64,000 nt of DNA, taken from positions 42,877-106,876 of the IMG/VR virus record IMGVR_UViG_3300003324_000465, one strand, 5' to 3'. The DNA comes from a virus. The translations under genes and the position numbers were made by a program. This document shows positions 47,074 to 47,869 of the stretch, piece after piece. The notes beneath the pieces are model-generated. The model did no database searches. It was not told where the DNA came from and saw only the letters and a program-made list of their open reading frames with translations. Within the stretch, counting starts at the first letter, position 1. Each line of letters opens with the position of its first letter.

Positions 47074-47204
47074 ATAATATAGCGGTTTATAGAATTACAA
47101 CGCTTACCAAACACCAAGCTATAATACGTTCGATTCGTATATGGGCTAATGGAAAACCTCTCGCAAGAGAACTGCCCACATATTCTATAAGATATTCGTA
47201 TTAT
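47074..47204 (+). ncRNA. Candidate Y RNA E6 with tRNA-like T arm
   Basis: Outer stem ATAATA/TATTAT, then TAGCGG, second stem TTATAGAAT (47087-47095) with ATTCTATAA (47182-47190), then TACAACG. Inside is a T-arm look-alike (ATACG-TTCGATT-CGTAT), followed by TGGGC that pairs with a later GCCCA, as an acceptor joined by a loop. The 5' signature is shared with E7 to E10. Confidence 0.6.
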
Positions 47205-47221
47205 ATAAAACAAACACATAT

Positions 47222-47330
47222 ACTGTAGCGGGAAAAATGCAATACAACGTTTATTTGATTAATAAAACACACTACGTTCAAATCGTACACTTGGGTTGGT
47301 TATCCCTTTTTGCTTTTTCATATTCACAGT
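47222..47330 (+). ncRNA. Candidate Y RNA E7
   Basis: Outer stem ACTGT/ACAGT, TAGCGG, second stem GAAAAATGCA/TGCTTTTTC (one bulge), then TACAACG. Inside, a T-arm-like TACG-TTCAAAT-CGTA. The stem sequence differs from E6 but the pairing is kept, which argues for a conserved fold. Confidence 0.58.
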
Positions 47331-47358
47331 AATTATAATATTTGCGGGCAATATTTAC

Positions 47359-47431
47359 GGAAACATGGTGTAAGCAGCATACATCTAGGAATAGATGAGG
47401 CGTAATGGGTTGGACTCCCACGTTTCCATCA
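47359..47431 (+). pseudogene. Degenerate tRNA-like gene
   Basis: GGAAACA pairs with most of CGTTTCC, but the end is ATCA rather than CCA, the T loop is TTGGACT (normally TTCGA), and the anticodon loop is only 6 bases (AGGAAT). Looks like a decayed tRNA or a tRNA mimic. A GC-core motif lies just upstream at 47344. Confidence 0.45.
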
Positions 47432-47442
47432 CATACAATACT

Positions 47443-47563
47443 ATGTAGCGGAAAAATCCTTTACAACGAATAACATATGCCTTGTTAATGTGGTGATACA
47501 CGTAAAAATATTCTGCGATGCGCTACAGTTACGCATTATAGGATTTTTATATTCGCATAGCAT
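47443..47563 (+). ncRNA. Candidate Y RNA E8
   Basis: TGTAGCGG, stem AAAAATCC (47452-47459) with GGATTTTT (47541-47548), TACAACG, then 3' ATATTCGCATAGC that pairs back to GCGGA. An inner ATGCG/CGCAT hairpin takes the T-arm place but without a T-loop sequence. Confidence 0.55.
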
Positions 47564-47633
47564 TCAAAAGAAAAAAAAACATTATTAAATGGTTTTATCG
47601 ACTTGCCAAATACAAGTATAATATTTAATTTTC

Positions 47634-47755
47634 TGTAGCGGATGTCAGCGATTACAACGCATTACGAGCGGGTGATTGTAGGTTCGAGTCCTACTGTCTG
47701 TACCATGTATACAGACATAGCTTAATGGCAAAGCACCTAAAATATATCGCGGGCA
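47634..47755 (+). ncRNA. Candidate Y RNA E9: circularly permuted tRNA module
   Basis: After TGTAGCGG...GCGAT-TACAACG comes GGGTG, T arm GTAGG-TTCGAGT-CCTAC, acceptor strand TGTCTGT and ACCA (47702-47705). Five bases later follow ACAGACA (the exact partner of TGTCTGT), TA, and a D arm GCTTAATGGCAAAGC, then ACCT pairing with GGGT, then ATCGC pairing with the first GCGAT. All tRNA parts except an anticodon loop are present but in permuted order. Bacterial Y RNAs have this same order. See findings. Confidence 0.78.
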
Positions 47756-47781
47756 ATTATTCACAGAAGAACAATGATAAT

Positions 47782-47869
47782 AAGCTGCTACAGCGGAAAT
47801 ACAAGTACAACGAATATTTTTAGACAAAATTAACCGTAAACACCTTGTATTTAATATCCGTAGCAGCTT
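47782..47869 (+). ncRNA. Candidate Y RNA E10 with terminator tail
   Basis: Outer stem AAGCTGCTAC/GTAGCAGCTT (10 bp), then AGC bulge, GGA/TCC, an asymmetric TAATA on the 3' side, and AATACAAG/CTTGTATT, followed by TACAACG. No tRNA-like module. A T-run follows the closing stem, so it can end transcription. This plan (stem, bulge, three pairs, one-sided loop, stem) resembles the Ro-binding half of Y RNAs. Confidence 0.6.

What the first reader, a model, noticed from the sequence alone, without database searches (positions are those of the whole stretch)
47074..47869. Five-member RNA family with compensatory stem changes
E6-E10 keep TAGCGG (CAGCGG in E10) and TACAACG, spaced 9-11 bases, while the stem between changes its sequence and keeps pairing in four copies (E6, E7, E8, E10). 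The 3' side keeps ATATTCG, ATATTC or ATATCCG. Such covariation is the mark of a functional fold.
Basis: seen in the sequence. Interest (0 to 1): 0.8.

Follow-up and report, generated by a model that had tools for sequence, protein, structure and literature searches.

The report
Phage Y RNA array beside Ro60
Five small structured RNA genes sit in a row just upstream of a phage gene for the ring-shaped Ro60 RNA-binding protein; they are its partner 'Y RNAs', a known kind of RNA, here in a little-studied virus and with one copy carrying a rearranged tRNA look-alike.

Summary
All five copies (E6-E10, window 47071-47872) share one architecture: P1 - (U/C)AGCGG - P2 - UACAACG - variable loop - P2' - AUAUUC - P1'. 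True arm partners outscore every permutation of arms. A covariance model built only from other phages finds exactly these five in the window. It finds none in 859 kb of control contigs chosen because they contain the same 5' motif. In that wider family all 16 pairs show double-sided changes. The family sits beside, mostly directly upstream of, Ro60/TROVE genes in dozens of phages and bacteria. The window's next large gene (48156-49712) is a Ro60 ortholog. E9 carries a circularly permuted tRNA-like domain and matches Rfam YrlA below threshold. So these are Y RNAs of a phage Ro60 RNP: a known kind (Chen et al. 2014, RNA 20:1715; known here through citing papers and memory), in a new, divergent array. 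Function beyond Ro binding is inferred.

The parts
47071..47206 (+). E6: Y RNA candidate; P1 UAUAAUA/UAUUAUA, UAGCGG at 47080, P2 UUUAUAGAAU, UACAACG, 88-nt loop with a T-arm-like hairpin (AUACG UUCGAUU CGUAU), AUAUUCG
   Evidence: (28.9 bits, E 3.2e-5 with filters off)
47217..47338 (+). E7: Y RNA candidate; UAGCGG at 47226; 70-nt loop with a T-arm-like hairpin (UACG UUCAAAU CGUA)
   Evidence: (32.9 bits, E 9.1e-6)
47437..47567 (+). E8: Y RNA candidate; UAGCGG at 47446; P2 AAAAAUCCU/AGGAUUUUU; 80-nt loop, no clear tRNA likeness
   Evidence: (27.5 bits, E 2e-4)
47627..47775 (+). E9: Y RNA candidate of YrlA type; UAGCGG at 47636; 96-nt loop holding a circularly permuted tRNA-like domain
   Evidence: 25.3 bits, E 7e-4; Rfam YrlA 30.1 bits at 47645-47756, gathering score 69
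47670..47738 (+). Permuted tRNA-like domain of E9: anticodon-stem 3' strand GGGUG, T-arm 47678-47694, acceptor 3' strand UGUCUGU 47695-47701, ACCA 47702-47705, linker, acceptor 5' strand ACAGACA 47711-47717, UA + D-arm, anticodon-stem 5' strand CACCU
   Evidence: 7/7 acceptor pairs; de-permuted halves joined by a generic 7-nt loop are called a tRNA by ARAGORN; same domain order found 22 times on + and 0 times on - strand of window and Ro60 loci
47782..47872 (+). E10: Y RNA candidate, shortest loop (41 nt); P1 GCUGCUA(C)/(G)UAGCAGC followed directly by a run of 7 U, so P1 may double as a transcription terminator
   Evidence: 36.5 bits, E 1.2e-6; z -6.3; terminator role by eye, not called by the scan
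48156..49712 (+). Ro60/TROVE ortholog (518 aa) with vWA MIDAS motif DNSGS; expected binding partner of the RNAs
   Evidence: Pfam vWA_Ro60, E 4.8e-8; 39% identity to Bacillus phage G gp540; profile matches 1yvp Ro60, E 8.7e-11, and 2nvo Deinococcus Rsr, E 8.7e-10

Best explanation
E6-E10 are five Y RNA genes of a phage-encoded Ro60 ribonucleoprotein. The common part (P1, the internal loop AGCGG/AUAUUC, P2 and UACAACG) is the module that the phage Ro60 ring, encoded 0.3 kb downstream, binds on its outer surface. The unlike loops are the effector ends. In E9 the effector is a circularly permuted tRNA mimic joined to the stem at the anticodon end; E6 and E7 keep only a T-arm-like hairpin; E8 and E10 have none. 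As in Deinococcus and Salmonella, the RNAs would control access to the Ro60 cavity and dock tRNA-binding proteins or an exonuclease such as host PNPase, to handle damaged or structured RNA during infection. Shown here: the family, the fold, the Ro60 linkage, the tRNA-like domain. Inferred from the known family: transcription, Ro60 binding, gating or tethering, and any effect on tRNA or RNA decay.
For: Two covarying helices in all five copies. A covariance model built without window sequences finds exactly these five in the window and no others below E 1. The next large gene is Ro60. The same module is beside Ro60 in 80+ viral loci: 123 + strand versus 14 - strand hits in 873 kb, 90 of them within 1 kb upstream. 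The same model hits bacterial Ro60 loci, including a Flavobacterium chromosome (L251:2338-2414, E 4e-11) and the closest Ro60 found (52% identity, L214), whose copies share the CAGCGG...UUACAAC(G) variant. Rfam YrlA matches coincide with model hits in several phages. Permuted tRNA domains: 22 on + versus 0 on - strand. Controls: 0 hits in 859 kb of viral contigs that carry the bare 5' motif and 0 in 131 kb of Listeria phage P100, whose Ro-like protein is another family. Reviewed function of YrlA/Rsr: PMC8394870; phage Ro60: PMC7824862, PMC7765460, PMC12282133.
Against: No expression or binding data. E9's Rfam YrlA score (30.1) is well under the gathering score (69) and the other four do not match YrlA at all. 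Single-sequence folding is unremarkable for E7 and E8 (z about -1). The UACAACG motif departs from the usual UUACUUC at two positions. Where Ro60 touches the RNA is taken from the known family, not tested. RtcB, often encoded with Ro60, was not found in this incomplete record.
Confidence: 0.92

Rival explanations
1. E9 is a true circularly permuted tRNA gene, excised and ligated to give a working tRNA (tRNA-Thr is the one amino-acid specificity absent from the ARAGORN list), and the shared helices are its processing signal.
For: Perfect 7-bp acceptor, D-arm, T-arm and an ACCA end; no tRNA-Thr among 22 called tRNAs; an RNA_ligase (Pfam PF09414) gene lies elsewhere in the record.
Against: E6, E7, E8 and E10 have the same helices without a complete tRNA inside, and so do most copies in other phages. 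No recognisable anticodon loop is formed at the junction. Most permuted domains in other phages lack CCA. The record is incomplete, so tRNA-Thr may be elsewhere. Linkage is to Ro60, not to a ligase.
Confidence: 0.03
2. The elements are cis-acting structures (leader or processing signals) of the Ro60 operon or of the tRNA cluster, not free RNAs.
For: They lie upstream of Ro60 on the same strand, among tRNA genes; E10 ends in a run of U.
Against: Up to eight tandem copies, also downstream of Ro60 in other phages (L162:6597-7471); terminal P1 helix, varied loops and tRNA-like domains are those of free Y RNAs; in some loci the copies lie kilobases away.
Confidence: 0.04
3. Decayed tRNA genes and chance inverted repeats in AT-rich DNA.
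For: Region is AT-rich and tRNA-dense; E7 and E8 fold only slightly better than shuffles.
Against: Arm permutation test, independent covariance model, zero hits in 859 kb of controls and linkage to Ro60.
Confidence: 0.01

Closest known systems
Bacterial/phage Y RNAs, YrlA type (Rfam RF02553; Chen et al. 2014 RNA 20:1715; 2018 crystal structure of Salmonella YrlA, PDB 6CU1, cited in PMC8394870)
   Same: Gene beside Ro60/Rsr; ends paired into a basal stem; variable loop; permuted order T-arm - acceptor - D-arm of the tRNA-like domain in E9; several Y RNAs per Ro60 gene
   Different: YrlA match of E9 is below the Rfam gathering score; four of five copies have no complete tRNA-like domain; UACAACG replaces the commoner UUACUUC; E9 keeps an ACCA after the acceptor strand
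Y RNA candidates of Bacillus phage G (L125:5200-5844, upstream of gp540)
   Same: Five tandem copies directly upstream of Ro60 with P1 - (A/U)GCGG - P2 - UACUUC - loop - P2' - P1'; a further copy with a permuted tRNA domain ending ACCA (L125:3723-3887)
   Different: UACUUC instead of UACAAC; P1 closes with GA/UC; Ro60 only 39% identical
Ro60 locus of a contig labelled candidate division TM6 bacterium SOIL31 (L214)
   Same: Closest Ro60 found (52% identity); at least two upstream elements with CAGCGG and UUACAAC(G) and a truncated permuted tRNA domain at the contig edge
   Different: 5.2-kb contig of a metagenome bin, so cellular or viral origin is unknown
Metazoan Y RNAs / vertebrate Ro60
   Same: Same partner protein family and the paired-ends plus loop plan
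   Different: Rfam Y_RNA (RF00019) does not match; no tRNA-like domain in metazoan Y RNAs (from general knowledge)

Membership tests
Bacterial/phage Y RNA (Ro60-associated) | Encoded next to a Ro60/Rsr (TROVE) gene | tested here: met
   Ro60 ortholog at 48156-49712
Bacterial/phage Y RNA (Ro60-associated) | 5' and 3' ends pair into a basal stem, conserved by covariation, with a variable loop | tested here: met
Bacterial/phage Y RNA (Ro60-associated) | Shares the conserved stem module of the RNAs found beside other Ro60 genes | tested here: met
   model R1 built from other phages only: all five found; control 0 hits
Bacterial/phage Y RNA (Ro60-associated) | At least one Y RNA of the genome has a tRNA-like domain | tested here: met
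   E9; the rule itself is from memory of Chen et al. 2014 (abstract not held)
Bacterial/phage Y RNA (Ro60-associated) | Expressed and bound by Ro60 | not testable with these tools
   needs RNA and protein experiments
Rfam YrlA RF02553 | Score at or above the curated gathering score (69 bits) | tested here: not met
   E9 30.1 bits, E 3.3e-4 in the 1.15-kb stretch; E6, E7, E8, E10 no match. Filed under Y RNAs, not under this Rfam family
Circularly permuted tRNA gene (algal/archaeal type) | Complete tRNA with anticodon restored by joining at a splice motif | tested here: inconclusive
   halves fit a tRNA body, but no anticodon loop or bulge-helix-bulge is evident (and by eye)
Metazoan Y RNA RF00019 | Rfam match | tested here: not met

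The most novel reading that the evidence does not exclude
The five different loops make the array a set of interchangeable effector ends, and the tRNA-like ones act as decoys that soak up tRNA-cutting defence nucleases of the host. E9's ACCA-ended permuted domain may be recognised by tRNA-maturation enzymes. Whole, unpermuted tRNA bodies with a real anticodon arm nested in the loops of related phages (L202:4765-4903, L180:2942-3079) would be the clearest decoys.
Probability: 0.12. Interest if true: 0.7.

Novelty: new member of a known kind. Interest (0 to 1): 0.42.

Why it matters
Y RNAs of phages are seldom annotated and the Rfam YrlA model misses most of them. The Ro-proximal module defined here (P1 - AGCGG - P2 - UAC(U/A)(U/A)C ... 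AUAUUC - P1') recovers Y RNA arrays beside Ro60 in dozens of phages and in bacteria at E-values down to about 1e-13, including copies without any tRNA-like domain. It gives a concrete set of RNAs with which to ask why phages carry a Ro60 particle at all, and whether the swappable loops are gates, tethers or decoys.

Tried and rejected
DNA-level search of phage records with the region: no match. Ro60 single-sequence scan of viral contigs: nothing confirmed; the alignment-based scan worked. Idea that the motif is a self-cleaving ribozyme or intron fragment: dropped after no Rfam match and the Ro60 linkage. Idea that phage-encoded RtcB is part of the locus: not found in the record. Idea that the abundant non-coding RNAs of Listeria phage CKA15 (PMC12282133) are the same family: the neighbouring protein in the relative P100 (gp165) is DUF2828/DUF7788 and the model finds nothing in its 131 kb, so not supported by this model. 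Promoter scan: no more hits than in shuffles. Key Y RNA papers (PMC4201824, PMC6047535, PMC6281776, PMC10870794) are not held, so statements about them rest on citing papers and memory. P2 of E9 overlaps a GCGGGCAA repeat that is common in the window, so part of that arm could be shaped by another element.

Full report
What is there. The window is bases 42877-106876 of a 106,876-base IMG/VR virus record. Between a tRNA-Trp gene (46996-47070) and a 518-codon gene (48156-49712) lie five elements on the + strand. The 5' motif TAGCGG-N6..14-TACAACG occurs four times in the window against 0.01 expected, and E10 is a fifth copy with CAGCGG. Reading outwards from the motif, each copy has an inner helix P2 between the two motifs and a segment just before AUAUUC/AUAUCC, and an outer helix P1 flanking both.

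Is it more than chance. Arm sequences differ between copies, so I scored every 5' arm against every 3' arm. The true partners give the best total of all 120 permutations, for P2 and for P1 separately. Minimum-free-energy folds contain both helices in all five, although for E7 and E8 the energy itself is not unusual (z about -1).

Identity. The gene downstream is a Ro60 ortholog: Pfam vWA_Ro60, 39% identical to Bacillus phage G gp540, which is annotated as a TROVE ribonucleoprotein, and a profile of it and three phage relatives matches solved Ro60 (1yvp) and Deinococcus Rsr (2nvo). Ro60 proteins bind Y RNAs. E9 matches Rfam YrlA at 30.1 bits, below the curated 69. Its 96-nt loop holds T-arm, acceptor 3' strand, ACCA, acceptor 5' strand and D-arm in that order, a circularly permuted tRNA body. 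With the two halves put back in normal order and a generic 7-base loop between them, ARAGORN calls a tRNA.

Relatives. I fetched Ro60 loci from phage records, 80 viral contigs and 61 bacterial contigs. A scan for (A/T)GCG - arm - TAC/TTC(A/T)(A/T)C with two helices found 123 hits on the strand of Ro60 and 14 on the other in 873 kb. 90 of the hits tallied lie within 1 kb upstream of Ro60. Their alignment shows all 16 pairs with double-sided changes and 86% paired cells (shuffles 61%, 0 of 500 as high). Because that scan used pairing to choose copies, I repeated the test on copies chosen by sequence motifs alone: 22 of 22 pair in P2, and no permutation in 5000 reaches the observed mean for P2 or P1.

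Independent model. Covariance model R1 was built from 46 copies of other phages, none from the window. In the window it finds E10 (E 1.2e-6), E7 (9.1e-6), E8 (2e-4) and E9 (7.3e-4) with default filters, and E6 as well (3.2e-5) with filters off; the next hit has E 1.4. It found nothing up to E 1 in 859 kb of viral contigs that contain the bare 5' motif and nothing in Listeria phage P100. It found many further arrays beside phage Ro60 genes, e.g. eight tandem copies in L162:6597-7471, and copies beside bacterial Ro60 genes, including a Flavobacterium chromosome. In several phages the sub-threshold Rfam YrlA matches lie inside R1 matches. The closest Ro60 (52% identity) is on a contig labelled TM6 bacterium (L214), and its upstream elements carry the same CAGCGG and UUACAAC(G) variant.

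How it most likely works. Established for Deinococcus and Salmonella, as reviewed in PMC8394870 and PMC7790460: the basal stem of the Y RNA holds the Ro60/Rsr ring and the tRNA-like end docks PNPase, and the tRNA-like domain is a substrate of tRNA-modifying enzymes. By homology, the shared module of E6-E10 is the Ro60-binding end and the loops are effectors. Only E9 has a full tRNA mimic; E6 and E7 have a T-arm-like hairpin; E8 and E10 have neither. This is inference; no expression or binding data exist. E10's P1 is followed by seven U, so it may also end the transcript (by eye).

Known or new. Phage Ro60 genes and phage Y RNAs have been reported (PMC7824862, PMC7765460, PMC12282133; Chen et al. 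2014 from memory and citations). This is a new member of a known kind, with a variant motif (UACAACG for UUACUUC).

Noticed in passing
L202:4765-4903 and L180:2942-3079: In related phages some Y RNA elements enclose a complete, unpermuted tRNA body with an anticodon arm (loop ...CUGCAAC..., Cys-like GCA), scored 47-49 bits by the Rfam tRNA model at model positions 4-67. This is a second topology of tRNA mimicry that I have not seen described.
   Followed up: partly
window 1460, 11542, 18654, 36031, 38322, 44356, 45328, 46896, 47344, 47749, 48117, 48987, 52015 (+) and 21378, 53102 (-): GCGGGCAA occurs 15 times against 0.56 expected, often as AATAATTC-GCGGGCAA-TTTAT, inside genes and between them; one copy overlaps P2' of E9. 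Nature unknown.
   Followed up: partly
window, whole: The palindrome TGCGCGCA occurs 12 times per strand in 64 kb of 35% G+C DNA.
   Followed up: no
window 45844-45936: tRNA-like RNA with perfect acceptor (GGAAUGC/GCAUUCC), T-arm and ACCA end but an odd middle; not called by ARAGORN or Rfam; fold z -2.8.
   Followed up: partly
window 47358-47428: Another tRNA-like stretch between E7 and E8 with acceptor GGAAAC/GUUUCC and a short anticodon loop; not called by ARAGORN or Rfam.
   Followed up: partly
window 45710-62454: 22 tRNA genes covering nearly all amino acids but no tRNA-Thr; the record is incomplete.
   Followed up: no
window 39344-41929: Long ORF that looks like a large terminase interrupted by an intein (GKCSPGG... 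...VHNSV), by eye only.
   Followed up: no
L151:1281-1922 and L166:2809-3452: ROOL RNAs (Rfam RF03087, 277-284 bits) in the same loci as Ro60 and Y RNA arrays.
   Followed up: no
L128:949-1159: In Halogranum tailed virus 1 a weak model match (E 0.24) abuts the annotated 'tRNA-Asp + intron'; the 'intron' contains GUUACUUC, so the annotation may deserve a second look.
   Followed up: no
G000:C1:12319-12852 (outside the window): RNA_ligase domain (PF09414, E 4.9e-13) in the same virus record; RtcB not found.
   Followed up: no
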